This document shows, piece by piece, positions 12,167-60,693 of a DNA stretch of 64,000 nucleotides. Origin of the DNA: Piezodorus guildinii (Eukaryota > Arthropoda > Insecta > Hemiptera > Pentatomidae); the NCBI GenBank assembly GCA_023052935.1, contig CM041297.1, positions 109,049,563 through 109,113,562 of the forward strand, read 5' to 3'. Within the stretch, counting starts at the first letter, position 1. Each line of letters begins with the position of its first letter. A program made the translations under genes and the position numbers. The notes beneath the pieces are model-generated. The model saw nothing but the letters and a program-made list of their open reading frames with translations, made no database searches and had not been told where the DNA came from.

Positions 12167-13477
12167 TTAAGGATTTTTTAAGGAAGGGATTAAATTTGAT
12201 ACGAGATTAGTAAGTAGTGATATTAGCGGCATAACAAGAGATTTGATTTCAGTGATGAAGGATGTCATCAAACTTGTAAGGTCTGTGACATTTGATGGAG
12301 GAGGAATATGAGAAATTTGATGCGGATGAGGTTTTTGAGGGTTGGGTAAATTTTGAGGAATAGGTGGTTGTGGAAGGGGTTCAGGATTTTGAAGTATGCG
12401 TTGTTCCGGCAGGGCCTCTTTGTTCTGGTTCCCACCTCCAAGTAGATGGGCAAATGTTACATTGGAATCAATTGTTTTTGAAGGTTGTCTTCTGCTTTTG
12501 ATCGGCTCAGCTGTTTCATCCAGATTCTGAGGTTTTTGGTATCTGCTTTTGAGGTTCTTGTAGATTTGACATCCCTTGTAGTTAGCCGGGTGGTCCTTGA
12601 GGCACAGAGCACATACAGCGGGTGTTGATCTTAATCGTGTACATTCTTCTGATTTATGTTGCTCACCGCATTTCACACAGCGTGGTGTGTGGTGACAGTA
12701 AGTTCTCGTATGACCATATGCCTGACAATTATGGCACTGAACTATTTCTTTCTTAGTGTAAGGTTTCTCAACTCTTACACTAGTATAGTACAACCTATTG
12801 AGGTCGTAAATTTTTTCAACTCCTGCTGATGGTTCCAAGTCCACGAAGAATAGAGGCAGTGGAATTTTATCTTTTAGGACATTGGTGACTTGCCGCACTT
12901 TATAGCCTATCTCCGTCAGTTCTTCTTTGATAGCTGTAACTGGTGTCGAAGGGTGTAGGTTTCTAATTACAACCCTTAAAGCTCTCTCCTGGCGCAACTG
13001 ATAGGTATGAAAATCAGCTTTGGTCTCAGTCAGATATTTCTCTATTTTTCTGTAGCTTTCGGCGGTAGTCGGGGATATTTTAGTATCACTGGTTCTACTT
13101 ATACAAGAATAACTATTAGGATCAGTTACTTTGTTTAAATGCGCACACATCAGTTGAAAATTTTTAATATTTTTAACAAATATTGGTGGAGGTAGTGGTT
13201 CCCTGGTTATAGGAGAAGATTCCATGGTTTCTTTTTCATTTTGGAGGATCTGAAATGGATTCGGTGTAAAAAACGGCGATTCATCAGTTAATCCTTGTGA
13301 TGATGTGCTAGGCTGTGGTTCAGATCCTAAAGAGGTAGCTGAAGCGGTCGCTGGGGGAATCATTTTTTTATTATTTTCACGGCGAGGTCTCTGTTTTGTA
13401 GGAGACGAATTTGAACTTGCAGATCTAGATCTTTTACTTGTAGCTTTTGAGGACATAACTTGATGGAAATATCTCAT
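12167..13477 (-). CDS. Jockey-like ORF1 (zinc-knuckle RNA-binding protein)
   Basis: An open 436-codon frame encodes the Gag-like nucleic-acid chaperone of a Jockey-clade LINE. The N-terminus is basic and Ser/Pro-rich (SKATSKRSRSA, KQRPRRENNKK). The centre has the conserved fold seen in insect LINE ORF1s, with PLPLFFVDLEP, followed by three CCHC-type knuckles: CHNCQAYGHTRTYC, CVKCGEQHKSEEC and CALCLKDHPANYKGC. The tail is Pro/Gln-rich. Translation could start at the first Met (13,477) or at the Met seven codons later. The stop (TAA, 12,167-12,169) directly abuts the ORF2 ATG. It is intact by reading frame, although its ORF2 partner is broken. Confidence 0.8.
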   Translation of the reverse strand: MRYFHQVMSSKATSKRSRSASSNSSPTKQRPRRENNKKMIPPATASATSLGSEPQPSTSSQGLTDESPFFTPNPFQILQNEKETMESSPITREPLPPPIFVKNIKNFQLMCAHLNKVTDPNSYSCISRTSDTKISPTTAESYRKIEKYLTETKADFHTYQLRQERALRVVIRNLHPSTPVTAIKEELTEIGYKVRQVTNVLKDKIPLPLFFVDLEPSAGVEKIYDLNRLYYTSVRVEKPYTKKEIVQCHNCQAYGHTRTYCHHTPRCVKCGEQHKSEECTRLRSTPAVCALCLKDHPANYKGCQIYKNLKSRYQKPQNLDETAEPIKSRRQPSKTIDSNVTFAHLLGGGNQNKEALPEQRILQNPEPLPQPPIPQNLPNPQKPHPHQISHIPPPSNVTDLTSLMTSFITEIKSLVMPLISLLTNLVSNLIPSLKNP

Positions 13478-19600: not shown

Positions 19601-19860
19601 ACGTATAGACCGACGCCGCCACCTGTGCGGCCTATTCGGTAGTGGCGTATAAAGGAATAATCGGGTAAGGAAACAGAAGAGGAGGGGATATAAGGTTTTA
19701 ACCATGTTTCTGAAATAGCTATGACATGATAAAAGTGCTGGCTAAAATATTTCAGAAATTCATCGTAATGGACTGGTAAGGATTGGGAGTTAACATGGCA
19801 AATGTTTAGGATATTAGACATGGGAATGAGATGGGAGAAGATGCCAAGAAGAAAAGGTAT
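16673..19860 (-). mobile_element. CR1/L2-like LINE, copy C (longest)
   Basis: About 3.2 kb on the minus strand, with an ORF2-type coding region from 19,821 to about 17,000, then a 3' UTR ending in AGAATAAAGTTC after a GGGACTTAGTCCC hairpin (16,697-16,710) and a TTCATTCATTC tail. No ORF1 is present; the right edge is just upstream of the endonuclease start, so it is either 5'-truncated or from a single-ORF family. It provides the reference for the shorter copies A, B and D-G. The target-site duplication is not clear. Confidence 0.75.
17139..19821 (-). pseudogene. CR1/L2-like EN-RT polyprotein, frameshifted
   Basis: The endonuclease (19,821-18,925) starts LNICHVNSQSLPVHYDEF and has AISETWLKP, GGVGLYVHNNLKF, AVVYRPP and SGDLNTNF. 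The RT follows in new frames: DYRPISILSNLSKPLERI (near 18,300), LILLDFSKAFDSLNHSIL and SSGVAQGSSISPILF (18,172-17,880). The YADDFQIY box is encoded at about 17,862-17,880 but in a different frame from the preceding segment, so a frameshift sits just before the active site. The C-terminal part (17,675-17,139) is open. At least three frame breaks make it inactive. Clade is judged from motif style only. Confidence 0.75.
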
Positions 19861-28404: not shown

Positions 28405-31400
28405 ATGAAATTCATGCAATGGAATATTAATAGTTTCCCTCAACATAGAGCTGACTTGCAAATAATATTATCTGAACATGATATATCAGTTATATGTCTT
28501 CAGGAAACAAAGCTCTCTTCTAAACATAAACTCTCTATCTCTGGGTATCTCGCATATCGAAGGGATTATGAATTCGAAAAATATCCTGTGGCGGGGTAGC
28601 CATTTGTGTTAGAGACAACCTCTATTGCTAGGAAGTCAAATGCTCTACTGCCCTTCAGGCTGTAGCTGCCCTCTATCCATTGCCCCTCCAGGATAACATT
28701 ATGTTCTCTGTATCTTCCGCCGGGAGAAATAATAGATCAAAATGAATTAAATAATTTAATTTGTCAATTACCGAACCCAAAAATTATTTTCGCCGATGCT
28801 AATGCTCGAAATACATGTTTGGGCTCTGATGCGACAAATCATAGAGGCCACCAAATACTAAAAATTCTAGATGAGCACGATCTCATTGTTCTTAATGACG
28901 ACTCTCCTACATACGTGTGCCCCAGGTATGGTTCATTTAGCCATACAGATATTACTGCATGCTCGCCTTCTATTTTGACCTAGCTTGAATGGAAAACCCC
29001 AAGTGACTTCCATTCAAGTGACCACACTCCCATAGTTACCTCCCTTCTTTCCACGCGTATCACCGACAAAACACAGTGTACAGCTAAGATTTGGCAAACA
29101 AAGAACGCAGACTGGGATAAATTTTAGATTGCTTTCATTGAACTATCTCAGAATATAAAGAAATTAATTTAGACGTTGATGGCTTTAATGACCTGGTCAT
29201 GAAAGCAGCTGAAAAATCCATTCCAAAGGTAAAATTTCGTAATGACAGAAAAATCCCTATTCCTTGGTGGGACAATGACTGCACAAAAGCTATTAGGTCT
29301 CGAAAACGTGCATTTAGGAAATTTATAAAATGTCCTAATGATACGAATTTACTACTATACAAACAGTCGAAAGCGCGTACCAAACGATTAATTGTGGAAA
29401 AAAAGAAATTATCGTGGCGCACATTTTTAGAATCTTTAAACCATAACACTCCAGCTAGTGAGGTATGGTCTAAAATTAATATGCTAAATCACAAACGATT
29501 TTCTACTATAACGGGAATAAGAACGGAATATGGTATTGTAACAGACCACCAAAAAATTGCTGACCTATTAGCTCAAACATTTTTAAAAATCTCTGATGAT
29601 ACTCATTACGACCTAAATTTCACTAAACATAAATTGAAAATTGAATCCGTACCAATATTGATAAATCAAACAACCCATCTTTTAAATACTCCAATAACGT
29701 ATAGTGAGTTAGATAACGCCTTAAATAAATCAAAATCCCGATCTCCTGGTCCAGATAATATTCCTTACGATTTTCTAAAAAAATTGCCATCATCGGGTAA
29801 ATCTAAGTTATTAACCCTTATGAATGATATTTATAAAAACGGTACATACCCCGATGTTTGGAGAAATGCAATTATCATTCCAATTCTCAAAGGAAATAAA
29901 GACAAAAACACGTCCTCAAGTTACCGGCCAATAGCATTAACTAGTTGCGTAGGCAAACTCATGGAGAGAATTCTCAATAATAGATTAAATTGGTTCATAG
30001 AAAAAAATAAACTTATTTCGGACAGGCAATGTGGATTCAGGAAGCATCATAGTACAATTCACAATATACTAAAACTGCTACAAGCTGTCTCCGATTCCTT
30101 TTTATCTAACTCATTAACAATAGCTATATCTATTGACATCGAGAAAGCTTTTGATACAGTTTGGAAGCGACTAATAATTGAGAAATTACTGGCTTGGGGA
30201 ATTCAAGGACACTTTACTCAATTTATCATTAATTTTTTATCTTATCGTCAATTTCAAGTGCGAATAGGAACATCCCTTTCTCAAAAAAAATACCAAATCA
30301 ACGGTGTACCGCAAGGATGCGTGTTAAGTCCAACTTTTTTTAAAATGGCCATTAACGGAATTACTAACTATATCTCTAAACCAGCTAAAGCTCTGTCATT
30401 CGTAGATGACATCTTAATATACTTCTAACTCTATCAAATTAGCAACTGACCATTTGCAATCTATAATGAATGACTTGGAAATTTGGCAACGCAAGACAGG
30501 TTTTTTAATTTCAGCTGAAAAAACAAAATTAATAGTATTTAGCTGAAAAAGGAATGTACCAGTGCCAAAAATAAAATTAAATAACAGAGAAATAACAAAC
30601 GTAACATCCATTAAATTTTTGGGAATGATATTTGATCACAAGCTGACCTGGATTCCTCACATTAAATATCTATTTAATAAATGCTTGAAGGCTCTAAATT
30701 TCCTTAAAGTTCTTAATAGCACTAAATGGGGAGCTGATAGGACAACGTTATTTCTGTTTTATAGAGCATACGACAGATCCCTACTAGACTATGGTTGTAT
30801 CGCCTATTCCTCTGCCTCACCTACAATACTAAGACTATTAGATCGGATTCATCATGCTGGTATCCGTATAGCTACTGGCACGTTCAGAACAAGCCCAACT
30901 GATAGCCTATGCGCCGAAGCTGGCGAACCGCCCTTAGAATACAGGCGATATATTTTGATATTAAAACAAGCCGTAAATTTGAAAGCATTACCCGGAACAG
31001 AATGCTCAAGCATACCAGACGAAAACCCATTATTCCACAAATATCTAGCCAAGAAAAAATTTTCAAAACCTTTTAATGTACGCCTAAAAATTCTATTACT
31101 CGAAAATAATTTTGTAATTCCGCGAATTTTCCAGCAATCCTTGACACCTTGAAAATTCCAACTTGGCACATTCGCTCGATTGATATTAATTATAAATTCC
31201 GTCATTATTCGAGAAAAAGTAGCACCATCAAAAAATACTTTTATGAATTCTTAGAAAGATATACAGGACATACTATTGTTTTTACTGATGGGTCGAAAAG
31301 CGCCAATAGTGTTGGATCCGCAGCAATAGTTGATGATTTCTCGGTTCAAACTAGCCTTCCTCCTGAATGTAGTTCCTTTACAGCTGAGCTAACTGCGATA

Positions 31401-40717: not shown

Positions 40718-43414
40718 TTAAACTAGAAGGTCCCGGGGCCATTTCCTTTTCAGGCGCCTCGGAGGATTATCCGGAATTGAAGAGGAAGACAAGATTGAAA
40801 CTAGTGGGTTAGAGTGAGAATGGAGTTTGTTATGAAAGGATTGATACCTGGTCTGGGCCAAATCAGTAACATAGGGAACATTAAGGTCTTTATGGATAAG
40901 TTTATTCGTGACAAAGTAAGGAGCGTTGAGGATTTTACGAAGGATTTTGGATTGTAAGGATTGGATGCGGGAAGAATTTGATGGTTTAGTAGAGCCCCAA
41001 AGCTCTAATCCGTAAGTCCAGATTGGTCTTATAATAGTCATGTAGATGAGCCTTTTGTAGTTAAGAGGAAGGTTTGATCGTTTGTCTAGTAAGTGTTGAA
41101 GTAGCCTAAAGCGGCGAGCAGTTTCTTGTCGTTTTAGTCGTGTATGTGGATTCCAAGTTAGGCGTTTGTCAAGAAGAAGTCCTAGGTATCGGATCTGTTC
41201 AACAGGAACTAGTTGAGTGTTATTAAAGGATACTTTAGGGCAGGAAGTCAAAGGTTTACGGCGAAGGGTAAAGGTTATTTGATGGGACTTGTTGGAATTT
41301 ATTTTTATTCTCCAGTTCTGACACCATACTTCTAGGTCTTTGATGTGGGCTTGGAGGGTATTTGAAGCAACAAATGGATCTTTATGAACTGATAACACGC
41401 AGGTGTCATCAGCATAGGTAGAAAGGAAAGTGTTAGGATGGGTTGGGATATCAGCTGTATATACTGTGTATAGAATGGGTCCTAGAATACTGCCTTGAGG
41501 AACACCAGCAGTCTGTGTATAAAGGGATGAATAGGAACTATTGTGATTAATTTTGAAGGATCTATCAGAGAGGTAGGATTGAAGAATCAGGAAATATGTG
41601 GGAGGAAGGAATTTACGGAGTTTGTACAACAGTCCTGGGTGCCAGACTCTATCAAAGGCCTGTTCTACATCGAGAAAGGCTCCCGTGCAGTACAACCCGC
41701 GCTCCAAAGCAGAAGAGACAACGTCCACCACACGATGACATTGCTGGATAGTGGAATGGGATGTTCGGAATCCGAACTGATGATCAGGGATGATATGATT
41801 AGAATCAAGGATGGGATATATTCGTTTCAGAAGGAGTTTTTCAAAGATTTTACCCATAATAGGTAATAGAGAAATTGGACGGTAAGAGGATGGATGTTCG
41901 GGCGGCTTTTGGGGTTTGGGAATCATCTTAACAATGGATAGTTTCCAGGAATCAGGAAAATATGTGGTCCGGAGGATAGCATTATATATGTAGGTAAGAA
42001 AACAGATGGATTTTCGAGGAAGCTGTTTCATTATACGGGAAGTAACTAGGTCATGTCCAGGAGCTTTGCGGGAAGGTAATCTGTGAATGATATTGGCTAT
42101 TTCTGAAGGATGAAATGCTTTAGGTGGTAGGGTCATTTGGAGAGGAATATCGAGTTCTGTTTCAATACATTCAACATGGTTTGAATTGAGTATTTCAGGA
42201 TGAGGATTGTATATTTTAGAGAGGTGCTGAGCAAATATCTGGGATTTTTCTTCGTCGGATCGTGTCCAGGTTCGGGTTTCATTAAGGAGTGGATGGTTGA
42301 AATTTTTAAACTTCAGGATTTTTTTAGTAGTCGTCCATAGTGATTTGTCAGCAATCGTAAGATTTTCCGTCAAGTTTTGTAAATTTTGTATTTTGTATTT
42401 TTTGAGTTCTGATTTTAGTTTGTTAGTCAGTTGGGTGTAATAAGTTTTGTCTGTTGGGTATCTGGTCCTGTGCCACTTCGATCTTGCTGTGCGCTTTTCT
42501 CTCAATAAGATCTGAATGTGCTGTGGTAGGTTACTTTTCTGAGGTTTATTAGGTTTGGTGTTAGTTGTGTTGTCTATTATGGTGCTACTTATTGAGTCAG
42601 TAAGTTTTTCTATGGCTAGGTCAATATCTTGTTTGGTCTTTAGTGGAAGTTTTAAGTCTAGTTTATTTTCTATGTCATATCGAAATTGGTCCCAGTTTAC
42701 ACGTCCTGTAATTAATGTAGGAGGAGAGGGTTTAGGAACAAAGTTTGAATGCAAAGAAAGCAGAACAGGACTGTGGTCAGATGAAAGGTCATTCAGGGAT
42801 TTGATTTCGGCTTGGGAAGTAGGGATTTGAGAGGTAACAAATATATCCAGGATATCAGGTTTTTTTTTTAGAGATGTAGGCCAATATGTGGGATTCGTAG
42901 GAGCAAGGATAGAATAACAATTGGAGTTTGTGACGTTAGAAAGGATACTACCACGGGAGTTGGATGCTCGACAACCCCATCGTTGGTGTTTAGCGTTGTA
43001 ATCACCTCCAGCAATGAAGCGCGGCCCAAGAGATCGGAATAAGGAATTAAGAAGGCTATAGGAAACGGTGTTACCAGGAGGACAGTATACAGCTGAGACT
43101 GTGAAATGGAAAGGACGAGTTGAAATTATTACAGAAGAGGATTGTATGGCGTCAGATGGAGTAGTAGGAATAAGGGAATGTGGAAGGGATTTATGGATAA
43201 GAACGCATGATCCAGCATGGGCAGTGTTGTCTGGGTGGTCTGTTCTATAAGTGATGTAGTCTCGTATGTAAAATTTTGATCGTTGAGTGAAGTGAGTTTC
43301 AGTTATTAATGCAATATGTATGTGATTGTCATGTAGGAGTATGTCGAGTTCGTCTCGGTGGTTGAGTAGGCCATTAGCGTTCCACAAGAGGATAGCTAGG
43401 GGCTTTACACTCAT
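40718..43414 (-). CDS. Jockey-like ORF2 protein: endonuclease-RT (898 aa)
   Basis: Polyprotein that nicks target DNA and primes reverse transcription there. The AP-like endonuclease (1-225) has LLWNANGLLNHRDEL, LITETHF, GGDYNAKHQRWGCR and SSDHSPVLLSL. The RT (about 440-720) has RKAPGHDLVTSRIMKQLP, SYRPISLLPIMGKIFEK, HQFGFRTSHSTIQQCHR, GAFLDVEQAFDRVWHPGL, AGVPQGSILGPILY, and the active site YADD at 667-670. The thumb region has IRYLGLLLDKRLTWNPH; the C-terminus ends RRLKRKWPRDLLV. There is no RNase H domain, as usual in Jockey. Every catalytic motif looks intact. The length is typical of the clade. Confidence 0.92.
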   Translation of the reverse strand: MSVKPLAILLWNANGLLNHRDELDILLHDNHIHIALITETHFTQRSKFYIRDYITYRTDHPDNTAHAGSCVLIHKSLPHSLIPTTPSDAIQSSSVIISTRPFHFTVSAVYCPPGNTVSYSLLNSLFRSLGPRFIAGGDYNAKHQRWGCRASNSRGSILSNVTNSNCYSILAPTNPTYWPTSLKKKPDILDIFVTSQIPTSQAEIKSLNDLSSDHSPVLLSLHSNFVPKPSPPTLITGRVNWDQFRYDIENKLDLKLPLKTKQDIDLAIEKLTDSISSTIIDNTTNTKPNKPQKSNLPQHIQILLREKRTARSKWHRTRYPTDKTYYTQLTNKLKSELKKYKIQNLQNLTENLTIADKSLWTTTKKILKFKNFNHPLLNETRTWTRSDEEKSQIFAQHLSKIYNPHPEILNSNHVECIETELDIPLQMTLPPKAFHPSEIANIIHRLPSRKAPGHDLVTSRIMKQLPRKSICFLTYIYNAILRTTYFPDSWKLSIVKMIPKPQKPPEHPSSYRPISLLPIMGKIFEKLLLKRIYPILDSNHIIPDHQFGFRTSHSTIQQCHRVVDVVSSALERGLYCTGAFLDVEQAFDRVWHPGLLYKLRKFLPPTYFLILQSYLSDRSFKINHNSSYSSLYTQTAGVPQGSILGPILYTVYTADIPTHPNTFLSTYADDTCVLSVHKDPFVASNTLQAHIKDLEVWCQNWRIKINSNKSHQITFTLRRKPLTSCPKVSFNNTQLVPVEQIRYLGLLLDKRLTWNPHTRLKRQETARRFRLLQHLLDKRSNLPLNYKRLIYMTIIRPIWTYGLELWGSTKPSNSSRIQSLQSKILRKILNAPYFVTNKLIHKDLNVPYVTDLAQTRYQSFHNKLHSHSNPLVSILSSSSIPDNPPRRLKRKWPRDLLV

Positions 43415-45039
43415 CGTGGGAAATTAAATGGGATTTCGGAAAGAATACGAGTGAGGAGGGAGATAAGTGGCTGGATGGTTTCTTTGAGATCTAATAGGAA
43501 GGAATTAAGAATGGAGTAAAAGTCGGGTGGGGGTATATTATAGGATTGGGAAGGATAATTTAGTTGAGCTGGTACATTGGCTGGAGTCTGCACCCGTCGA
43601 GGGGTACAATGATATGCATTTTGGGATGTTTGGGGTTGAGGATTGGGTTGATTTGGCTGTACAGTAGAACGGGGTGGGATCGGGTGAGGTTTTTCTGGAG
43701 GTAATTTAACCCTAACAGGTATCTGATGAAGAGGGGTTGGCTGGTGTGGAGCTTCAAGCTGGGGATGGGAAATCTGGGTCATGGGTTGGGAGTTCGGAGG
43801 CGCCTGCCGTCTAGGTTGTTGAGGCTGCGAGTCGATAACGGAGGAGGGCTTCTTAATGTTCCGTCGATCTTGATTTCCAGGTTTTGGAGTAGTTGGCTGT
43901 GGAGTCATGTTAACAGCAGGTTTCTGAATTTCTGGAAAATTTACCAGGTTATCCAGTACAGGAGGTGGTGCAGGTGTATTACTTTTCTGTTCCAGACTTT
44001 TGGGTAGAAGGTTTTGTGATCTCTGTCTGAGCAGATTTTTGTAGACCGAACAGCCTCTGTAGCTCGCTGGATGTGCTTCACCACAGAGAGCACATTTTGC
44101 TGGTTCATCACGAGATTTCGGGCAGGTCTCTGTAGCATGAGGGCCGGCACATTTGACGCACCGGGCCTGGTGGTAACAGTAGGATTTAGTGTGTCCCAAA
44201 TTTTGACATTTAGTACACTGTACTATTGTAGATGTCGGCCTAGGCTGTTCAAATCGCACAATGGAGTATACCAGTCGTGTTATATTGAATATTTCTGGGT
44301 TATTTGTGGCAGGCTCTAGATCCACGAAAAATAGAGGCAGTGGATATTTTCCCTTTGGATGGAAAACGGGAGAGACCTTTCTGACATTGTAGCCTATTTC
44401 TTCTATCCCTCTTTTGATAGCATCTGTGGGAGTTGATGAGTGGAGCCCTCTAAGAACGACACGATATGACTTTTCTTGTTTCAATTGGTAACAATGGAAG
44501 TCGTAGCTTTTCGAATTCAAATGGTTGACAAGCTTTTTGTAACTGTCTTTATTTGTTGTATTGATCTTAATATCATTTGTTCTCGAGTAACAACGAAAGT
44601 TGGGCTGTCCGATCAAATCTGCAATTTCTTGACCAAACGACATAAAATTTTGTATGTTGTTGACAAATATTGGTGGGGGTTCGGGATCACAAAACCCTTG
44701 AGAATCTGAAATTATGTTGGCTGTACCTGACGTACTGGCAGAGGTAGATGGCGCTGTGAAGACAGACGGAGCGGCTGATGATGATGGAACTGGTTCTATT
44801 GTGTTGGCTGCAGTGAGTTTACTGCGGGTTTTTGGCGGTGACATATTTTGCTCAGACGCCTGCTTATTTTTATTTGATTTATTTTTTTTTTTATTTGGTG
44901 AGTTACCCCCAGATCCAGGAGGAAGGGAGTTCCGATGCCGCTTCATACGGCGAGTTAAATATTGAGAGTCCGTTTCACTTATTTCAGAGAAAGGGGTCTC
45001 CTCTGAGTCGTCACCGGACGTATTTCTATCTAAGTCCAT
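43411..45039 (-). CDS. Jockey-like ORF1 protein (542 aa)
   Basis: Gag-like nucleic-acid-binding protein of the LINE, which coats the RNA and accompanies it to the target DNA. The N-terminus is acidic (DDSEETPFSEISETDSQ), followed by a basic nuclear-localisation-like stretch (KKKNKSNKNK). A central conserved region (about 155-270) includes YDFHCYQLKQEKSYRVVL and PLPLFFVDLEPA. Three CCHC-type knuckles follow at 275-288, 294-306 and 316-330. The C-terminal 200 residues are Pro/Gln-rich. The stop codon overlaps the ORF2 start as ATGA (43,414-43,411), suggesting coupled termination and reinitiation. No internal stop or frameshift is present. Confidence 0.9.
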   Translation of the reverse strand: MDLDRNTSGDDSEETPFSEISETDSQYLTRRMKRHRNSLPPGSGGNSPNKKKNKSNKNKQASEQNMSPPKTRSKLTAANTIEPVPSSSAAPSVFTAPSTSASTSGTANIISDSQGFCDPEPPPIFVNNIQNFMSFGQEIADLIGQPNFRCYSRTNDIKINTTNKDSYKKLVNHLNSKSYDFHCYQLKQEKSYRVVLRGLHSSTPTDAIKRGIEEIGYNVRKVSPVFHPKGKYPLPLFFVDLEPATNNPEIFNITRLVYSIVRFEQPRPTSTIVQCTKCQNLGHTKSYCYHQARCVKCAGPHATETCPKSRDEPAKCALCGEAHPASYRGCSVYKNLLRQRSQNLLPKSLEQKSNTPAPPPVLDNLVNFPEIQKPAVNMTPQPTTPKPGNQDRRNIKKPSSVIDSQPQQPRRQAPPNSQPMTQISHPQLEAPHQPTPLHQIPVRVKLPPEKPHPIPPRSTVQPNQPNPQPQTSQNAYHCTPRRVQTPANVPAQLNYPSQSYNIPPPDFYSILNSFLLDLKETIQPLISLLTRILSEIPFNFPR

Positions 45040-53830: not shown

Positions 53831-54009
53831 AACAGAGCAGACAAAAAAACGACGAAAAAAATCTTAGGGAAAAAAATTACTTTAAAAAAAATGAAAAATA
53901 AATGCATTTATTAACAGAGTTTAAATTTGGCAAATACACGAATATTTGTGAATATATAATTCACTTATATCAATTACTATTATAGAAGAGTAATTTAAGT
54001 TATGAATAT

Positions 54010-54574
54010 TGCTACGGTCAAGACAATGACGGGTGGACCACGCCTGGAGGGGCCTAGATGAGGCTAGAGACTTCTGGACCTGGACAGTCCTCGAAGTGCC
54101 TGGAAAGGCCCACCACCCTACCTGCGCCCGGGTCTAGAAGATTCGGCGGTGGTTTAAATAGCGGTCCCCTGAGTCTAGGTGGGTCAGTCCTAATCCGGCT
54201 CAACAAGCATCTGTGATGTATCAGTGAACAGTGACAGTGAACCGTTCGTGACAGTGTGACAGTGTAGTGAAACTGTGTGTCAGTATTGTGATAACCGGTC
54301 GGTGGGAAATTAGAAGACTGTAGTTTATATATGTGTTTTATAGTTGTAAATTCTAGAATAAGTCTAACAGATTGTATGAATTTACGTAAGTAGTTTATTT
54401 GTTAGGAATACCTCATTTTATATGTATACTGTTTAGTAGTTAAGCTAGTGATTCCATTATTATTGTTAATATAGTGGTTAGTAATCCCTTTGTATTTGTG
54501 TTTTCTGTATTTAATAAATATTTGTAATTTGTAAACTGGAGTAGTTCATTTCTCACACCCCGTAGCCCGTAACA
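54010..54574 (+). repeat. 5' LTR
   Basis: Starts TGCTACGGTCAAG and ends CCCGTAACA (TG...CA). It contains a TATA-like TTTAAATA (54,153-54,160), an initiator-like TCAGT about 30 bp further (54,184-54,188), a cluster of CAGTG motifs (54,218-54,285) and a polyadenylation signal AATAAA (54,513-54,518). I find no difference from the 3' LTR when read side by side. Confidence 0.95.
54153..54188 (+). promoter_or_regulatory. LTR core promoter (TATA box plus initiator)
   Basis: TTTAAATA is followed after 23 bp by TCAGT, an arthropod-type initiator; its A at 54,186 would be the start site, placing the TATA box about 30 bp upstream. This would define U3 as 54,010-54,185 and the start of R at 54,186. Confidence 0.55.
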
Positions 54575-54577
54575 ATT

Positions 54578-54595
54578 TGGTGTCAGAAGTGGGAT
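54578..54595 (+). other. Primer-binding site (tRNA-Leu type)
   Basis: TGGTGTCAGAAGTGGGAT starts 3 nt after the LTR. Its complement is a CCA-ended tRNA 3' terminus with TCTGACA acceptor bases and the ATCCCA end of a T arm, which fits leucine tRNAs as I know them from animals. Confidence 0.75.
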
Positions 54596-54658
54596 CATTG
54601 TAAATGGTTATAATTTTGGTTTTCTTGTTTTTGTAATTATTGGGCTACTGTGTGGAAA

Positions 54659-56605
54659 ATGACTTCTCAGAGTGTTAGACTGAATGATTTAAAAGTTGCA
54701 GACTTAAGACGGGAGTTAGAAGAACGAGATCTGGATACTTTCGGAACGAAATCAGTACTGCAACAACGCTTGCGCCAATTTTTTGTTGATTCAGGGGAAA
54801 ATCCAGACGAGATTACGTTTGAAAATGATTTCAGTAAGTTGTCTGCAATTTTTAAAACTGAATTAGGCACTGTTAAAAATGAGTTAGGTAATGAGTTAAG
54901 TACTGTTAAAAATGAGTTAGGTAATGAGTTAAGTACTGTTAAAAATGAGTTAGGTAATGAGTTAAGTACTGTTAAAAATGAGTTAGGTAATGTAGAAAAG
55001 AAGTTAGGTAATGAATTAAGTACTGTTAAAAATACATTGGAGGCTAAGTTAGGCAATTTAGAAACTAAGTTAATGGAAAGTGTAGATAATAAGTTAGCTG
55101 ATGTAGAATCTAGATTAGGAGAAAAAGTCGATTCAGTAGAAAATGAACTTAGGGTAAGAATAGAAGCTCTAGAAGAACGTATGAACAACCCAACGACAAT
55201 CGACACCGACCAACCCTCTGAGAGAAGCCCTCACAACACCATTCCCTCCGCCAATGCTGGGATGCCACCAACGCACAACACCATCCCATTGTTCGACGGG
55301 AAGACACCGTGGGAGGACTACATGACTCTCTTCGAGACAGCGGCTTCGATCCACGGGTGGTCAAAGGAGACGCAAGCATCAGCGTTGTGCCTAGCCTTGC
55401 GTGGAGACGCCTTAGGAGTGCTACAGGGGATGCCCATGTCGGAGCGGTGCAACTACAGTGAGCTGATGAAAAGACTGGAGATGCGTTTCGGCCATCGCCA
55501 CATGGACCAACTATACCGTTCCCAGTTAAAGAACAGGGTCCAGAAGACCAACGAGACGCTGCAGGAATTTGAAGCAGATATCGCCCGGCTAGTAAGGAAT
55601 GCCTACCCAACGGTCACCGACGACGTCTACGAGAGCTTGGCTATCGACAAATTCCTGGATGGACTTCGAGACCCGGAAACCCAACAGGCAGTGAAACTCG
55701 CACGCCCTAAAACTTTGGGCGATGCATTGTCGCAGGCCATGGAATTCGAGGCTGTCAGGCAGTCAGTCCGTGGACATGCACGAGTTCGAGCGGCAGAAGC
55801 GGAGCCTAACGCGGCCCCCACCATCGAGGACATAGTAGCAAAGGTTTTAGAAGCCCTCAGGACCCGCAAAAAGGAGATACGCTGTTGGAGCTGCGGTCAA
55901 CTTGGACACCCCAGAAGCAAGTGTCCTACCAGGAAGCCGGAAAAAGCCACAGGAAAACTAAGGAGGGTTGATGGGAAGGGGCAACTGTCAACCCGTAGCA
56001 TCAAAGGCCCCAGGGTCGCCGTGAGAATCGCGACAATAGGGAGCAAGACAAATAGTTTCTATGTGGATGGAATGGTGAACGGGCAGCTGCGGAGTTTTCT
56101 GCTGGATACCGGCGCAACCATGACAATACTGAACCCGAAGGCAGTTAACGCTGAGAAGATATCACCTACCACTTGGGCGTTACGGACAGCCACAGGACAG
56201 CCAGCCGAGGTCTACGGGGAGACAGTTGCCACTTTCTTCATCGGGGGCCAACGTCTAGAGCACCGCGTTCTCGTGGCGAAAATAGACGAGGAAGTCATCT
56301 TCGGCATGGACTTGATGATCAAATACGGGATCAAGCTGGACATGTCGAGAGGTGTGATGACGCTGGGAGACGAAGAGGTCATCCTTCGGCAGGGAAAGGA
56401 CCTCTATGCACGAGTACTCCTACTGGAAGACACCACTTTACCTGCACGGAGTCAAATTCTGACGCATGGGACGATCAATGGACGACTACCGGAGGGTCAA
56501 TGTCTTCTACTTGAACCTGGGAAGCACGAGGAGCAGGAAGTCGGACGCGGTGTTTGGTTGCAAGGTCTCTCATCAAGGTCGGACATACCACCCCAATCCG
56601 ACTGA
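54659..56605 (+). CDS. Gag-protease polyprotein (648 aa)
   Basis: Structural and protease part of the Gypsy element. The start chosen is the ATG at 54,659 (AAAATGAC context). Residues 5-42 form a SAP-like motif (LNDLKVADLRRELEER, FGTKSVLQQRLRQF), known elsewhere as a DNA/chromatin-binding helix-extended loop. Residues about 70-180 are a long coiled coil made of 11-residue units (VKNELGNELST), encoded by 33-bp tandem repeats (54,869-54,980). A capsid-like Gag domain follows at about 205-370 (PLFDGKTPWEDYMTLFE). A CCHC knuckle is at 409-422 (CWSCGQLGHPRSKC). The aspartic protease has LLDTGATMTIL with the catalytic Asp at 483. The frame stops at TGA 56,603-56,605, past the protease. Codon use shifts from AT-rich to GC-rich near residue 178. 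Confidence 0.9.
   Translation: MTSQSVRLNDLKVADLRRELEERDLDTFGTKSVLQQRLRQFFVDSGENPDEITFENDFSKLSAIFKTELGTVKNELGNELSTVKNELGNELSTVKNELGNELSTVKNELGNVEKKLGNELSTVKNTLEAKLGNLETKLMESVDNKLADVESRLGEKVDSVENELRVRIEALEERMNNPTTIDTDQPSERSPHNTIPSANAGMPPTHNTIPLFDGKTPWEDYMTLFETAASIHGWSKETQASALCLALRGDALGVLQGMPMSERCNYSELMKRLEMRFGHRHMDQLYRSQLKNRVQKTNETLQEFEADIARLVRNAYPTVTDDVYESLAIDKFLDGLRDPETQQAVKLARPKTLGDALSQAMEFEAVRQSVRGHARVRAAEAEPNAAPTIEDIVAKVLEALRTRKKEIRCWSCGQLGHPRSKCPTRKPEKATGKLRRVDGKGQLSTRSIKGPRVAVRIATIGSKTNSFYVDGMVNGQLRSFLLDTGATMTILNPKAVNAEKISPTTWALRTATGQPAEVYGETVATFFIGGQRLEHRVLVAKIDEEVIFGMDLMIKYGIKLDMSRGVMTLGDEEVILRQGKDLYARVLLLEDTTLPARSQILTHGTINGRLPEGQCLLLEPGKHEEQEVGRGVWLQGLSSRSDIPPQSD
54869..55030 (+). repeat. 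33-bp tandem repeat in gag (coiled-coil units)
   Basis: The unit ACTGTTAAAAATGAGTTAGG plus TAATGAGTTAAGT is repeated three times almost perfectly, then in degenerate form. It keeps the reading frame and the heptad-like Leu/Val spacing, so coiled-coil length could vary between copies by unit slippage. Confidence 0.9.
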
Positions 56606-59600
56606 TGAATCTGAACACCTTCCCGGTGACACTAAAGAGAGGAACACCAGTCGGAGAATGTACGGCCGCTACCTCAGTAGTTCGACAGCTACAACGCAAC
56701 CCCACCGAGCAACGAGGACTACCCGAAGAATTAAAAGGATTCGTGGAGGAATCATGCAGAGAACTTTCGCCTGAACAGAGCGAAATCGTGAAGAGATTGA
56801 TTACCCGATGGCAGGACATTTTCGAGATCAGCTCAGGACCACGGGGTAGAACGAACATCGTCCAGCACAAAATTGACACCGGGGATACAAAGCCCATCCG
56901 ACAGATCCCGAGGAGGCTGCCGCTAGCTAAACGAAAGGATGCCGAGGAGATTATTAAGGATATGGCGAATGATGGTGTCATCGAGCCCTCGAGTAGCCCA
57001 TGGATGTCACCTGTCGTACTGGTGAAAAAGAAAGATGGGACGACAAGATTCTGCGTAGATTACCGTCTTTTGAACAACGCCACGAAGAAGGACAGTTACC
57101 CACTCCCAAGGATTGACGACACGCTGGACACACTAGAGGGTTGCAAACTATTTTCTACCTTGGATCTCCGCAGTGGATATTGGCAGGTTGGATTGGCACC
57201 GGAAGATAAGGAGAAGACGGCATTTTCAATCGGCACTGGCCTCTGGCAATTTACGGTAATGCCATTCGGGCTTTGCTATGCACCTGCAACGTTCGAGAGG
57301 CTGATGGAAAGCGTCTTAAGAGGCCTTTCTTGGGAGATATGCCTGGTTTACTTGGACGACATCATTGTACTGGGAAAATCCTTCACTCACCATCTGGAGA
57401 ATCTGGAGCGGGTCTTCGAACGGCTGCGTGCAGCTAATCTAAAACTGAACCCGAAGAAGTGCAATCTCTTCCGAAGGCAAGTCAACTACCTGGGGCATGT
57501 TGTATCAGACAACGGAGTTGCTGTTGACCCAGAGAAGATTACAGCGATCACCAATTGGCCAGCACCTCGAGATAAGCACCAAGTGAGAAGTTTCCTCGGA
57601 CTCTGCACCTACTACAGGAGGTACGTGAAAGGATTCGCCAGCATCGCAAAACCTCTTACCAGGCTCACTGAGGAAAAACGGACTTTCCTTTGGGATCGCG
57701 AGTGTCAGGCTTCATTTGAGGAGTTAAAGAAGAAATTGAGTAGTGCGCCTATTCTAAGCTATCCACGTCCCGAGGGCAAGTTCATTCTTGACACAGATGC
57801 CAGCAACACTGCTATTGGAAGCGTCCTTTCCCAACTCCAAGACGGGGAAGAAAAGGTTATTGGGTACTTCAGCAAAGCACTGTCAGCCCCAGAACGCAAC
57901 TACTGTGTCACAAGGAAAGAGCTTCTGGCAGTGGTTAAGTCCATAGAGCACTTTCATAAATACCTGTATGGAAGAAGATTTCTACTGAGAACGGACCACG
58001 CAGCTCTAATGTGGCTGCTGCGATTCAAGTCACCGGAGGGACAAGTTGCACGGTGGATCGAGCGCCTTCAGGAATATGACTTCGAATCTGCTCATCGTTC
58101 TGGAACGAGTCACCGGAATGCGGATGCGCTCTCAAGGAGACCCTGTGACGGAGAATGCAAGCATTGTTCTCGACAAGAAGAAAAGCAAGCAACAGTGTTG
58201 CGGACTACGGTCGTTACCGACGGTTGGCAGGACACACAACTGGCAAAGGAACAGGACGAGGACCCGGACTTGAAACAAATAAGGGAATGGAAGCTATCAG
58301 GCCAAAGGAGACCAAGCTGGCAGGATGTTGCTCCAATGTCGAAAAATATAAAAACCTATTGGGCTCAATGGAACTCCATTCTACTGGACAAAGGTCTGCT
58401 GAAACGAGCATTGGAGAACACAGAGGGAGATCAGCGGAGACTACAGCTCATCGTACCAAAGATTAAAGTGCCCGAAGTACTGAGGGAATTACATGATGGA
58501 GCATCTGGTGGCCACCTTGGAGTTCACCGGACATTAGAAAAGGTTCGTGAACGCTTTTACTGGGCAAACCTCAAGGACGATGTGTTAGATTGGTGCCGGC
58601 GGTGTGCAACTTGTGCCGCCTCTAATGGACCGATAAGGAAAAATAAGGCACCTATGAAGAAATACAACGTAGGAGCACCATTCGAGAGAATAGCGGTAGA
58701 CATCGCTGGCCCTTTTCCTGTGACAGATAATGGCAACCGATACATTCTCGTGGCCATGGATTATTTTTCAAAGTGGGTGGAAGCTTACGCCCTTCCGAAT
58801 CAGGAGGCCGCCACGGTTGCAGATGTTCTCGTGAAGCAGCTCGTCAGTCGGTTTGGGGTGCCCATGGAACTTCATGCTGACCAAGGAAGAAACTTTGAGT
58901 CGGCAGTCTTCTCCAGGATGTGCGAGGCTCTAGGAATACGGAAGACCAGAACGACGCCTCTTCACCCTCAGTCCGATGGCATGGTAGAGCGCATGAACAG
59001 GACGATGGGTCGATATTTGGCCAAGGTAGTTTCTGACCATCAGCGAGACTGGGACCAATATCTTCATCTGTTCCTGCTAGCCTATCGTAGTTCAGTCAAT
59101 GAAACGACAGGGCAGACCCCCGCCAATGTCGTGTTCGGTAGAGAACTACGCTTGCCTTGCGATCTGAAATTCGGTTTCAAGCCTGATGAGGAGGTCGCCG
59201 GAGAAGACTACGTCACGAACCTACGGAAGCGAATGAACACTATTCACGAGAAGGTTCGCACAAACATCCAGGGAGCAAGTGACAGAATGAAGGAGCGTTA
59301 CGACATCAAGGCAGAGAAAGGTGGCTTCCAACCTGGAGACTTGGTCTGGCTACACGATCCTCGAAGAAGGCAAGGCTACTCACCGAAACTTCAAAACTCC
59401 TGGGACGGACCGTATGAGGTCATCAAGAGGATCAATGATGTCATCTATAGGATCAGGAAGCAGCCCAAAGGAAAACCCAAGGTAGTCCATTTCAACCGAT
59501 TGGCTCCATACAAGGGAAACCATGGCCCTACAGAGGAACAGCAAGTGAGGAACCTCACCGACAAGGACCTAACTCCCCATCCTAAGGCGCCAGACTCCCT

Positions 59601-60144
59601 TAGGGTAACGCAGACAGTTTACAGAGACATATTCTCGTTACCGGTAGACTATGCTCTAGCACATTGTGTCGCCGAACATCTGAGGAATTCCCGGGGGATT
59701 GCGACGGTCTTCAGGAAGAAGTTCGCTGGAATTGAAGAGCTGGAACGCCAGGGACCAAGAGTTGGGAAGACTCTCCATCAAGAGCATGAAGGCCGGCACC
59801 TGTTTTACTTGGTTACCAAGAGTTCATCAGAGCAGAAGCCGACATACGACACACTGCGCCGGAGTCTTGACGACCTGCGGAGAAAGCTTCTGGAACTGCG
59901 TGTCACCAAGCTCGCCATCCCGAAGTTGGGTTGTGGATACGATGGCCTGGAGTGGAGGATTGTCAGGAACATTGTAGAAGAGACGTTCGCCAACTCTGGA
60001 GTCATCATAATGGTATGCACGTTCAACCCCTGGAAAGACAAAACACCTACATCGGAGGAAGATCAGCATCGCTCAGCTTCTGCAATCTGTGCTCTGGGGC
60101 AGAGCACGTCTAAGGAGGGGGTAGTGCTACGGTCAAGACAATGA
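56554..60144 (+). CDS. Pol polyprotein: RT, RNase H, integrase, macrodomain
   Basis: Open in the -1 frame relative to gag; homology to Gypsy linkers begins at about 56,554 (numbering from there, 1,196 aa), but this codon is TTG. The first ATG is 56,605, overlapping the gag stop as TGATG. RT: D204 (STLDLRSGYWQ) and YLDD at 266-269. RNase H: D415, E456, D481 and D524. Integrase: N-terminal zinc-binding His/Cys set (H647, H654, WCRRCATC), then D716, D776 and E812, a DD35E triad. A GPY/F-type module lies around W950 (SWDGPYEVI). No chromodomain is seen. Residues about 1015-1160 are a macrodomain of the TARG1/OARD1 type (VTQTVYRDIFSLP, ALAHCVAEHLRNSRGIA, KPTYDTLRRSLDDL, PKLGCGYDGLEW). The frame crosses the polypurine tract and stops 20 nt inside the 3' LTR. 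Confidence 0.9.
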   Translation: MVARSLIKVGHTTPIRLMNLNTFPVTLKRGTPVGECTAATSVVRQLQRNPTEQRGLPEELKGFVEESCRELSPEQSEIVKRLITRWQDIFEISSGPRGRTNIVQHKIDTGDTKPIRQIPRRLPLAKRKDAEEIIKDMANDGVIEPSSSPWMSPVVLVKKKDGTTRFCVDYRLLNNATKKDSYPLPRIDDTLDTLEGCKLFSTLDLRSGYWQVGLAPEDKEKTAFSIGTGLWQFTVMPFGLCYAPATFERLMESVLRGLSWEICLVYLDDIIVLGKSFTHHLENLERVFERLRAANLKLNPKKCNLFRRQVNYLGHVVSDNGVAVDPEKITAITNWPAPRDKHQVRSFLGLCTYYRRYVKGFASIAKPLTRLTEEKRTFLWDRECQASFEELKKKLSSAPILSYPRPEGKFILDTDASNTAIGSVLSQLQDGEEKVIGYFSKALSAPERNYCVTRKELLAVVKSIEHFHKYLYGRRFLLRTDHAALMWLLRFKSPEGQVARWIERLQEYDFESAHRSGTSHRNADALSRRPCDGECKHCSRQEEKQATVLRTTVVTDGWQDTQLAKEQDEDPDLKQIREWKLSGQRRPSWQDVAPMSKNIKTYWAQWNSILLDKGLLKRALENTEGDQRRLQLIVPKIKVPEVLRELHDGASGGHLGVHRTLEKVRERFYWANLKDDVLDWCRRCATCAASNGPIRKNKAPMKKYNVGAPFERIAVDIAGPFPVTDNGNRYILVAMDYFSKWVEAYALPNQEAATVADVLVKQLVSRFGVPMELHADQGRNFESAVFSRMCEALGIRKTRTTPLHPQSDGMVERMNRTMGRYLAKVVSDHQRDWDQYLHLFLLAYRSSVNETTGQTPANVVFGRELRLPCDLKFGFKPDEEVAGEDYVTNLRKRMNTIHEKVRTNIQGASDRMKERYDIKAEKGGFQPGDLVWLHDPRRRQGYSPKLQNSWDGPYEVIKRINDVIYRIRKQPKGKPKVVHFNRLAPYKGNHGPTEEQQVRNLTDKDLTPHPKAPDSLRVTQTVYRDIFSLPVDYALAHCVAEHLRNSRGIATVFRKKFAGIEELERQGPRVGKTLHQEHEGRHLFYLVTKSSSEQKPTYDTLRRSLDDLRRKLLELRVTKLAIPKLGCGYDGLEWRIVRNIVEETFANSGVIIMVCTFNPWKDKTPTSEEDQHRSASAICALGQSTSKEGVVLRSRQ
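59596..60033 (+). other. Macrodomain (TARG1/OARD1-like) within Pol
   Basis: About 145 residues matching the whole macro fold of the terminal ADP-ribose protein glycohydrolase family, which removes ADP-ribose from acidic side chains and hydrolyses related esters. The family's catalytic Lys and Asp correspond to K1089 (YLVTKSSSE) and D1130 (GCGYDGLEW), 41 residues apart as in human TARG1 (K84 and D125). The nucleotide-binding GCG loop and the N-terminal GDIF-like strand (here RDIFSLP) are present. A protease cleavage site before it is not evident. Confidence 0.88.
60112..60121 (+). other. Polypurine tract
   Basis: AAGGAGGGGG ends three bases before the 3' LTR, the expected place for plus-strand priming. 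It is also coding, being inside the end of pol. Confidence 0.8.
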
Positions 60145-60689
60145 CGGGTGGACCACGCCTGGAGGGGCCTAGATGAGGCTAGAGACTTCTGGACCTGGAC
60201 AGTCCTCGAAGTGCCTGGAAAGGCCCACCACCCTACCTGCGCCCGGGTCTAGAAGATTCGGCGGTGGTTTAAATAGCGGTCCCCTGAGTCTAGGTGGGTC
60301 AGTCCTAATCCGGCTCAACAAGCATCTGTGATGTATCAGTGAACAGTGACAGTGAACCGTTCGTGACAGTGTGACAGTGTAGTGAAACTGTGTGTCAGTA
60401 TTGTGATAACCGGTCGGTGGGAAATTAGAAGACTGTAGTTTATATATGTGTTTTATAGTTGTAAATTCTAGAATAAGTCTAACAGATTGTATGAATTTAC
60501 GTAAGTAGTTTATTTGTTAGGAATACCTCATTTTATATGTATACTGTTTAGTAGTTAAGCTAGTGATTCCATTATTATTGTTAATATAGTGGTTAGTAAT
60601 CCCTTTGTATTTGTGTTTTCTGTATTTAATAAATATTTGTAATTTGTAAACTGGAGTAGTTCATTTCTCACACCCCGTAGCCCGTAACA
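60125..60689 (+). repeat. 3' LTR
   Basis: Same 565 bp as the 5' LTR (offset 6,115). The polyadenylation signal AATAAA is at 60,628-60,633. It is followed directly by the ATAT target duplication. Confidence 0.95.
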
Positions 60690-60693
60690 ATAT

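What the first reader, a model, noticed from the sequence alone, without database searches (positions are those of the whole stretch)
56554..60144. Gypsy Pol polyprotein ends in a TARG1-like macrodomain
Seen: one uninterrupted frame runs RT-RNase H-integrase-GPY/F and on into a full-length macrodomain in the place where env would be. Known: TARG1/OARD1 macrodomains erase ADP-ribose from proteins, and several RNA viruses use macrodomains to counter PARP-based defence. Inference: this retrotransposon may reverse host ADP-ribosylation of its capsid, integrase or target chromatin, or use the fold to read ADP-ribose at damaged DNA. I know of no described Gypsy lineage with this fusion, but I cannot search.
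Basis: partly seen in the sequence, partly recalled or inferred. Interest (0 to 1): 0.95.

Follow-up and report, generated by a model that had tools for sequence, protein, structure and literature searches.

The report
Gypsy retrotransposons carrying a TARG1 macrodomain
A recently active jumping gene in an animal genome, probably an arthropod's, ends its replication protein in a copy of an enzyme that strips ADP-ribose tags from proteins and nucleic acids, and a whole branch of related insect elements carries the same fusion, hinting that these elements erase a tag the host uses against them.

Summary
One open frame (56554-60144) runs RT, RNase H, integrase, GPY/F, then a complete TARG1/OARD1-type macrodomain (residues 1018-1156), ending at the polypurine tract with no room for env. 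It lies in a Ty3/Gypsy element with identical 565-bp LTRs. The domain matches human TARG1 at E=5.6e-32; its AlphaFold model superposes on TARG1 at 1.1 A over 140 residues without a gap, putting TARG1's catalytic Lys84 and residue 125 on K1089 and D1130. The genome holds at least 150 copies of the domain at 99-100% identity.

It is no one-off capture. Of the 121 nearest listed Pols (query included), 27 carry the domain; the 20 placed on a tree share one clade (SH-aLRT 100) with three that lack it. Retroelement macrodomains form one clade (96/84, rooted) beside animal OARD1: one old capture, inherited with Pol. Most relatives also carry a CCCH zinc finger behind it (19 of 27 tails), which the window element lacks.

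Best reading: an ADP-ribosyl hydrolase delivered in Gag-Pol that removes host ADP-ribosylation from the element's own proteins or nucleic acids. Activity and target are inferred. I found no description of such a Gypsy lineage; fish retroviruses with macro domain ORFs are the nearest precedent.

The parts
54010..54574 (+). 5' LTR, 565 bp, TG...CA
   Evidence: identical to the 3' LTR, 0 differences
54006..54009 (+). target-site duplication ATAT (left)
   Evidence: flank5 ...ATAT, flank3 ATAT...
54578..54596 (+). putative primer binding site TGGTGTCAGAAGTGGGATC, three bases after the LTR
   Evidence: sequence at that place; the tRNA was not identified
54650..56605 (+). Gag-protease ORF: SAP domain (54680-54784), repeated coiled-coil-like region (about 54814-55186), Retrotrans_gag (55391-55672), CCHC knuckle (55883-55924), aspartyl protease (56063-56317)
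56554..60144 (+). Pol-macro ORF, 1196 codons (in this copy in another frame than the protease)
57022..57501 (+). reverse transcriptase (YLDD at residue 266)
   Evidence: Pfam RVT_1 5.7e-36
57691..58077 (+). RNase H
   Evidence: Pfam RT_RNaseH and RT_RNaseH_2
58453..59508 (+). integrase: H2C2 zinc domain, rve core, GPY/F-type C-terminal domain
   Evidence: Pfam Integrase_H2C2, rve, Integrase_p58_C
59605..60021 (+). TARG1/OARD1-type macrodomain, residues 1018-1156
   Evidence: PDB TARG1 E=5.6e-32; AF2 + Foldseek/VIA; own HMM
59818..59820 (+). codon of K1089, equivalent of TARG1 Lys84
   Evidence: alignment, gap-free superposition, codon AAG
59941..59943 (+). codon of D1130, equivalent of TARG1 residue 125
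   Evidence: alignment, gap-free superposition, codon GAT
60112..60124 (+). polypurine tract, overlapped by the ORF tail
   Evidence: AAGGAGGGGGTAG directly before the 3' LTR
60125..60689 (+). 3' LTR, 565 bp; holds the stop codon of the Pol-macro ORF
60690..60693 (+). target-site duplication ATAT (right)

Best explanation
This is a young Ty3/Gypsy LTR retrotransposon of a clade that once captured a TARG1/OARD1-type coding sequence, probably an animal's, and has mostly kept it ever since as the C-terminal domain of Gag-Pol. SHOWN: the anatomy, the predicted fold, the conserved catalytic pair, the single clade of the fusion and its inheritance with Pol, and recent amplification. INFERRED (likely): the domain binds and hydrolyses ADP-ribose on TARG1 substrates (Glu/Asp esters, phosphate ends of nucleic acids, thymidine in single-stranded DNA) and, as part of Pol, enters particles at low dose together with RT and integrase. 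INFERRED (more likely than the rivals): its use is self-protection, i.e. removing ADP-ribose that host PARP-type enzymes place on the element's RNA, its single-stranded cDNA, integrase or Gag, or on chromatin at the integration site, thereby weakening ADP-ribosylation-based restriction or silencing. In most relatives a CCCH zinc finger behind the macrodomain may hold the eraser on RNA or cDNA; the window's lineage lacks it.
For: TARG1 match and fold. K and D equivalents: both kept in 243 of 244 domains found by macro similarity, hosts included; in a set of 34 retroelement domains, 14 of which were first listed by the integrase search, K in 31 of 33 and D in 29 of 32, at a median pairwise identity of 51%. 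One clade of retroelement domains: 99/93 with 35 of them, 96/84 when rooted with 16 of 80 viral TARG1-type domains. All 20 macro Pols long enough for the tree in one clade, SH-aLRT 100, with 3 macro-less rows. Macro and Pol distances correlate, r=0.705, n=19, 0 of 9999 permutations as high. At least 150 copies of the domain in this genome at 99-100%, 66 identical (the window's included), none with a stop inside. LTR pairs without a substitution in 14 of 14 copies with both LTRs, fully identical in 12, 4-bp target duplications in 12 of 14. 10 of 14 copies show Gag overlapping Pro-Pol in the -1 frame, so the domain would come as the end of a frameshift Gag-Pol. [quoted passage not shown] Gypsy-superfamily elements tend to rise without PARP-1 in Drosophila (passages of PMC7712786). 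Viruses named after insects carry TARG1-like macrodomains too (thrips virga-like and flavi-like viruses; also Kadipiro virus VP8; that Kadipiro virus is mosquito-borne is recalled), and so do viral contigs, mostly phage by my guess, which suggests convergent use.
Against: No activity was measured. In one ADP-ribose loop the retroelements mostly have SRGIA where animal OARD1 has MGxGIA; the effect on binding is unknown. In 3 of 34 members the pair is changed (P0253, P0256, P0259) and in P0134 a three-residue deletion makes the aspartate doubtful (one search aligns one there). Three members of the Pol clade lack the domain (P0248, P0251, P0260), so it is dispensable in some lineages. The domain evolves faster than Pol (mean distance 0.50 against 0.28). 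PARP-1's effect on fly retrotransposons may be indirect, as its authors say. That the host has PARPs was not shown: that search did not complete. The synonymous-only variation among 31 copies is no evidence of selection, because those copies were picked with identical protein pieces.
Confidence: 0.55

Rival explanations
1. Reader, not eraser: the domain binds ADP-ribose at DNA breaks or PARylated chromatin and guides the preintegration complex there, much as a chromodomain guides chromoviral integrases.
For: It sits directly behind the integrase GPY/F domain in the place where chromoviruses carry a chromodomain (position recalled; chromodomain as a known LTR accessory domain: PMC6338049 passage). 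The catalytic pair is changed in P0253, P0256 and P0259.
Against: A pure reader need not keep the catalytic lysine and aspartate, yet most members do. Whether the domain stays joined to integrase or is cut off by the protease is unknown.
Confidence: 0.22
2. The domain acts on small molecules (O-acetyl-ADP-ribose, NAD turnover) or on general host signalling rather than on the element itself.
For: TARG1 also hydrolyses O-acyl-ADP-ribose (PMC7050489 passage).
Against: A Pol-level dose inside particles is a poor way to change a cell-wide metabolite (inference); linkage with a CCCH finger in most relatives points to nucleic acid.
Confidence: 0.08
3. Structural part of Pol: the fold is kept for particle assembly or integrase stability, its chemistry being irrelevant.
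For: Always at the same place behind the integrase in the members seen; the nearest relatives without it end 6-19 residues after the integrase (18 of 18 rows P0262-P0279).
Against: Conserved active-site residues; relatives without it exist in the same clade.
Confidence: 0.1
4. Chance passenger, assembly join or gene-model artefact.
For: Host genes are sometimes caught by retroelements (general knowledge); some single hits are probably gene-model chimeras (P0140, P0159).
Against: At least 150 near-identical copies of the domain, with LTRs and target duplications where examined, and a clade of diverged members with the same join.
Confidence: 0.01

Closest known systems
TARG1 / OARD1 / C6orf130 (ALC1-like macrodomain class)
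   Different: C-terminal domain of a retrotransposon Gag-Pol, not a free protein; SRGIA instead of MGxGIA in one loop; its own clade.
Ty3/Gypsy LTR retrotransposons without env (nearest macro-less Pols here, e.g. P0262-P0279)
   Same: RT-RNase H-IN order and GPY/F-type end; up to 65% identical in the integrase.
   Different: Those 18 Pols stop 6-19 residues after the integrase C-terminus; here about 210 further residues with a macrodomain. Five other macro-less rows have longer tails of another kind (P0243, P0281, P0304, P0312, P0350).
Fish epsilon-like endogenous retroviruses with macro domain ORFs (Basta et al. 2009, cited in PMC4977317)
   Same: LTR retroelement with a captured macro domain (review passage).
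   Different: Retroviruses of fish; an additional open reading frame by the review's words; type of macro domain not stated there. The 2009 paper is not held and was not read.
Macrodomains of RNA viruses (alphavirus nsP3, coronavirus Mac1) and of insect viruses (Kadipiro virus VP8)
   Same: Macrodomain encoded by a replicating element; Kadipiro VP8 is 42% identical over the domain.
   Different: Alphavirus and coronavirus domains are far less similar (12-18% identity) and belong to another macrodomain class (recalled).
DarG antitoxin and TARG1-type macrodomains of viral contigs
   Different: DarG lacks the acidic partner (PMC7050489 passage); the retroelement domain has both residues.
Chromoviruses (Gypsy with chromodomain) and Gypsy elements with DNA methylase
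   Same: Accessory domain in LTR-element polyproteins (PMC6338049 passages).
   Different: Another domain with another chemistry; no ADP-ribose enzyme mentioned there (0 occurrences of ADP-ribos).

Membership tests
Ty3/Gypsy LTR retrotransposon | Two LTRs with TG..CA and short target duplication | tested here: met
   565/565 bp identical, ATAT both sides
Ty3/Gypsy LTR retrotransposon | PBS after the 5' LTR and PPT before the 3' LTR | tested here: inconclusive
   PPT present and PBS-like stretch present at those places; the tRNA match was not tested
Ty3/Gypsy LTR retrotransposon | Order PR-RT-RNase H-IN (RT before IN, unlike Copia) | tested here: met
   Pfam order
Ty3/Gypsy LTR retrotransposon | Gag with Retrotrans_gag and CCHC knuckle | tested here: met
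   Retrotrans_gag 25.4 bits, cutoff 24.1; CCHC
Gypsy with env (errantivirus) | env ORF after Pol | tested here: not met
   macro ends about 100 bases before the 3' LTR; no other ORF of 100 codons or more there
A named Gypsy clade (Mag, Mdg3, Gypsy, CsRn1 ...) | RT phylogeny against reference clades | not tested
   no reference set was at hand; only the nearest public Pols were used
TARG1 (ALC1-like hydrolase) | ALC1-like macrodomain fold and sequence | tested here: met
   (fold from a predicted model)
TARG1 (ALC1-like hydrolase) | Catalytic pair Lys84 and residue 125 | tested here: met
   K1089, D1130 by gap-free superposition and sequence alignment
TARG1 (ALC1-like hydrolase) | Orthology: groups within animal OARD1 | tested here: not met
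   retroelement domains form their own clade beside the sampled animal ones; beetle and hemipteran host OARD1 were not sampled: a captured relative, not OARD1 itself
TARG1 (ALC1-like hydrolase) | ADP-ribosyl hydrolase activity | not testable with these tools
   needs purified protein
CCCH zinc finger (relatives of the window element) | C-x(6-10)-C-x(4-6)-C-x3-H behind the macrodomain | tested here: met
   19 of 27 tails of 35 or more residues among 34 members, 0 of 90 macro-less Pols; Pfam zf-CCCH above cutoff in 3 of 7 scanned (P0128, P0134, P0255); absent in the window element; AF2 gives the finger low confidence

The most novel reading that the evidence does not exclude
A Gypsy clade found in beetles and hemipterans acquired, once and long ago, a nucleic-acid-directed de-ADP-ribosylation module (TARG1-type eraser, in most members with a CCCH finger) that cleans ADP-ribose off its own RNA or single-stranded cDNA; it would imply that insects mark retroelement nucleic acids or proteins with ADP-ribose as a defence.
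Probability: 0.28. Interest if true: 0.92.

Novelty: new variant of a known kind. Interest (0 to 1): 0.78.

Why it matters
Macrodomains of RNA viruses are treated as evidence of ADP-ribosylation-based antiviral defence. A retrotransposon clade that has kept a TARG1-type eraser through deep divergence would point to the same conflict inside the genome, between retroelements and host ADP-ribosylation, in insects, which have no interferon (recalled). It gives a concrete test: which ADP-ribosylated molecule of a retroelement does it clean? It also warns annotators: public gene models called OARD1-like in a leafhopper, a planthopper and a potato beetle fall inside the retroelement clade.

Tried and rejected
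Pfam Macro at the default threshold did not report the domain; it appears below the cutoff at a looser threshold, so a negative Pfam call here is no evidence against it.

One-off capture or assembly join: rejected by copy number, LTRs and relatives.

P0140 (Nucella) and P0159, with RNase H or integrase zinc-domain pieces before a macrodomain (Pfam column), looked like independent fusions; in the trees their macrodomains fall on the side of ordinary OARD1 (for P0140; for P0159) and they are single short models, so I take them for gene-model chimeras. Not followed further.

Host OARD1 in the same genome: searched with the mollusc OARD1 P0228; all 150 scored matches (of 505 candidates) were 37-39% identical and look like the retroelement family, so whether the host has its own OARD1 is unresolved (an intron-split gene could be hidden). 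Host PARPs: six requests with PF00644 did not complete.

Host species: unnamed; arthropod is an inference from the nearest named relatives (Macrosteles, beetles). No species search was left.

dN/dS between element families was not possible (no DNA for the relatives). Within the genome, the 31 copies compared all have the same protein piece, since the first 30 loci were the identical ones; their 3 variable sites are synonymous by that choice and I draw nothing from it. The LTR ages are likewise from copies with identical domains.

Structure of macro plus CCCH (P0127): macrodomain confident, finger region pLDDT about 44-52; no fold claim is made for the finger.

Papers: searches. None of the listed titles or abstracts describes a macrodomain in a Ty3/Gypsy element; four lists were capped (20 of 479: 20 of 75: 20 of 37: 12 of 46), and the library lacks most subscription journals. 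Listings only were seen except passages of PMC4977317, PMC10499221 (reference list only), PMC6338049, PMC7050489, PMC4299795 (terms absent), PMC7712786, PMC4695847, PMC8501950.
Full report
WHAT IS THERE. The ORF at 56554-60144 is open for 1196 codons. Pfam finds RT, RNase H, integrase zinc domain, integrase core and a GPY/F-type integrase C-terminus in order. About 32 residues after the integrase C-terminus a macrodomain begins (1018-1156); behind it lie 40 residues of tail that run across the polypurine tract into the 3' LTR, where the stop codon lies. The element has 565-bp LTRs at 54010-54574 and 60125-60689 with no difference, TG..CA ends, and ATAT on both sides. Upstream lies a Gag-protease ORF with an N-terminal SAP domain, a repeated coiled-coil-like region, Retrotrans_gag, a CCHC knuckle and an aspartyl protease. 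There is no env and no room for one.

COPIES IN THE SAME GENOME. The genome (1.2 Gb, unnamed) gave 150 scored matches out of 546 first-look candidates with the macro piece, all 99-100% identical, 66 of them identical over the whole piece, none with an internal stop; the window's own copy is one of them. The first 30, all identical in protein, became loci. Of these I took all 16 on the plus strand for their 5' ends: 14 have a 5' LTR in the stretch fetched; in these 14 the two LTRs differ by no substitution and in 12 by nothing at all; 12 have a 4-bp target duplication. LTRs differ between copies (89-98% to the window's, gaps counted). The family is young, at least in the copies sampled. In 10 of 14 copies Gag ends in one frame and Pro-Pol-macro opens in the -1 frame with about 148 bases of overlap, a usual retroelement frameshift layout (one of the ten, L047, has a further break near the Gag start); 2 of 14 read Gag and Pol in one frame over the stretch seen (L053, L060), and 2 have a break near the Gag start (L048, L052; L052 also a stop). 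The window copy alone among these 15 has protease and RT in different frames; its open frame of 1209 codons is shared by one other row and one.

RELATIVES. Searching with the macro part of the ORF among proteins of similar length gave 152 hits, 120 listed: Pol or Gag-Pol fusions in the longhorn beetles Molorchus minor and Aromia moschata, in two records filed under the fungus Erysiphe pulchra, and in unnamed contigs; and three sawfly proteins with two macrodomains each and no Pol. Many of the beetle models lack most of Pol. Searching with the macro piece alone gave 172 hits, 120 listed: mostly insect OARD1 genes, a few from other animals, plus short pieces of the same retroelement type in Leptinotarsa, Brassicogethes, Gonioctena, Nilaparvata and Macrosteles. 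The fungal records and a Klebsiella record (P0252) are probably insect contamination (inference). The third protein search used the integrase, so that macro presence was not selected for: of the 121 Pols (query included; 120 listed of 1529) 27 carry the macrodomain. Every listed Pol above 66% integrase identity has it except P0248, P0251 and P0260; every one at or below 65% lacks it. The 18 nearest of these, P0262-P0279, stop 6-19 residues after the integrase; five macro-less rows have longer tails of another kind (P0243, P0281, P0304, P0312, P0350). In a Pol tree of 59 rows (44 macro-less rows from P0300 on and 18 short rows, 7 of them with macro, left out) the 20 macro rows lie in one clade of 23, SH-aLRT 100. 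So: one gain, up to three losses, or P0260 branching before the gain. P0251 still shows, by eye, remnants of the tail behind the macrodomain.

ONE CAPTURE. In macrodomain trees all retroelement domains are one side of a branch: 93/92 with 31 against 33 others, 99/93 with 35 against 22. Rooted with 16 of 80 TARG1-type domains from viral contigs, the retroelement clade has 96/84, the animal-side clade 97/90. Caveats: P0155 from Rhamnusium has no Pol part and is the deepest retroelement-side row, its label resting on similarity; P0123, P0124, P0127, P0128 and P0130-P0133 have no detected Pol part either and were put on the retroelement side before the tree. Macro and Pol distances correlate over 19 elements (r=0.705, 0 of 9999 permutations). 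The domain thus most likely entered once and was inherited with Pol. It lies beside, not inside, the sampled animal OARD1s: the capture is old or the domain evolved fast; host OARD1 of beetles and hemipterans was not sampled.

A SECOND MODULE. Most relatives carry a CCCH zinc finger directly behind the macrodomain: 19 of 27 tails of at least 35 residues (7 of the 34 tails were too short); 0 of 90 macro-less Pols show the pattern anywhere; Pfam zf-CCCH above its cutoff in 3 of 7 scanned. The eight tails without it are those of the window element and P0003, P0007, P0010, P0125, P0245, P0247 and P0130, the last with one cysteine missing. As finger-bearing members sit on several branches, the ancestor probably had macro plus finger (inference; no ancestral-state test was run). 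AlphaFold gives the finger low confidence.

IS THE SITE UNDER CONSTRAINT. In 244 domains found by macro similarity (hosts included) lysine and aspartate both stand in 243; that set is chosen by similarity and holds many near-copies. In 34 retroelement domains, 14 of them first listed by the integrase search, K stands in 31 of 33 and D in 29 of 32, the median pairwise identity being 51%. P0253 and P0259 have R for K, P0256 and P0259 N for D; P0134 has a three-residue deletion there and its D is a matter of alignment. Most of the clade thus looks catalytically competent and a minority not. A frequent difference from animal OARD1 is SRGIA for MGxGIA.

HOW IT PROBABLY WORKS. Shown: placement, predicted fold, residues, inheritance, recent amplification. 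Inferred: an active eraser made as the end of Gag-Pol and taken into particles. TARG1 acts on acidic-residue esters, nucleic-acid phosphate ends and thymidine-linked ADP-ribose in DNA (PMC7050489 and PMC8501950 passages); reverse transcription exposes ends and single-stranded cDNA, so the element's own nucleic acids, or integrase and Gag, are the natural targets (inference). A motive exists: loss of PARP-1 in Drosophila tends to raise gypsy-superfamily transcripts, though perhaps indirectly (PMC7712786 passages), and SIRT6 silences L1 by ADP-ribosylating KAP1 (PMC4695847 passage). Other genetic parasites carry the same class: Kadipiro virus VP8, thrips virga-like and flavi-like viruses, iridescent viruses, and many viral contigs, 80 of 80 examined with both residues (one of the two search patterns itself asks for the aspartate).

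KNOWN OR NEW. Known: TARG1, Gypsy elements, and accessory domains in LTR-element polyproteins (chromodomain, DNA methylase; PMC6338049 passages). Nearest precedent: macro domain ORFs in fish epsilon-like retroviruses (PMC4977317 passage; the primary paper is not held). Searches for macrodomain or macro domain, TARG1 or OARD1 with Gypsy, retrotransposon or transposable element returned nothing that describes this lineage (listings, some capped, and passages where named). I rate it a new variant of a known kind.

Noticed in passing
P0123, P0124 (Macrosteles quadrilineatus), P0132 (Nilaparvata lugens), P0181 (Leptinotarsa decemlineata): Public gene models named ADP-ribose glycohydrolase OARD1-like fall on the retroelement side of the macrodomain tree. 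P0181 has a Pol C-terminal stretch; P0123 and P0124 begin with sequence like the linker behind the integrase (by eye). Probably retrotransposon fragments, not host OARD1.
   Followed up: partly
P0004-P0006 (Athalia rosae, Neodiprion pinetum): Sawfly proteins without Pol that hold two TARG1-type macrodomains each; both domains of P0004 and P0006 group with animal OARD1. Function unknown to me.
   Followed up: partly
L061-L140: 127 stretches of IMG/VR viral contigs encode TARG1-type macrodomains (80 kept); all 80 keep the lysine and the aspartate.
   Followed up: partly
BFVD entries A0A8E0KJF2, A0A7G9IR66, A0A7G9IR80 and others: Kadipiro virus VP8 and several thrips-associated RNA viruses match the model closely: repeated uptake of TARG1-type domains by insect viruses seems likely.
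   Followed up: no
window 54680-55186: Gag begins with a SAP domain followed by a coiled-coil-like region with repeats of 33 bases; the place where the Gag match starts differs between copies.
   Followed up: no
window 40718-45039 (-), 18925-19821 (-), 29199-30428 (+), 12167-13477 (-): LINE-like ORFs: endonuclease and RT domains, and PRE_C2HC proteins.
   Followed up: no
copies across G000: LTRs of copies differ by up to about 11% from the window's (gaps counted) while each copy's two LTRs agree: several LTR variants seem to have been active together.
   Followed up: no
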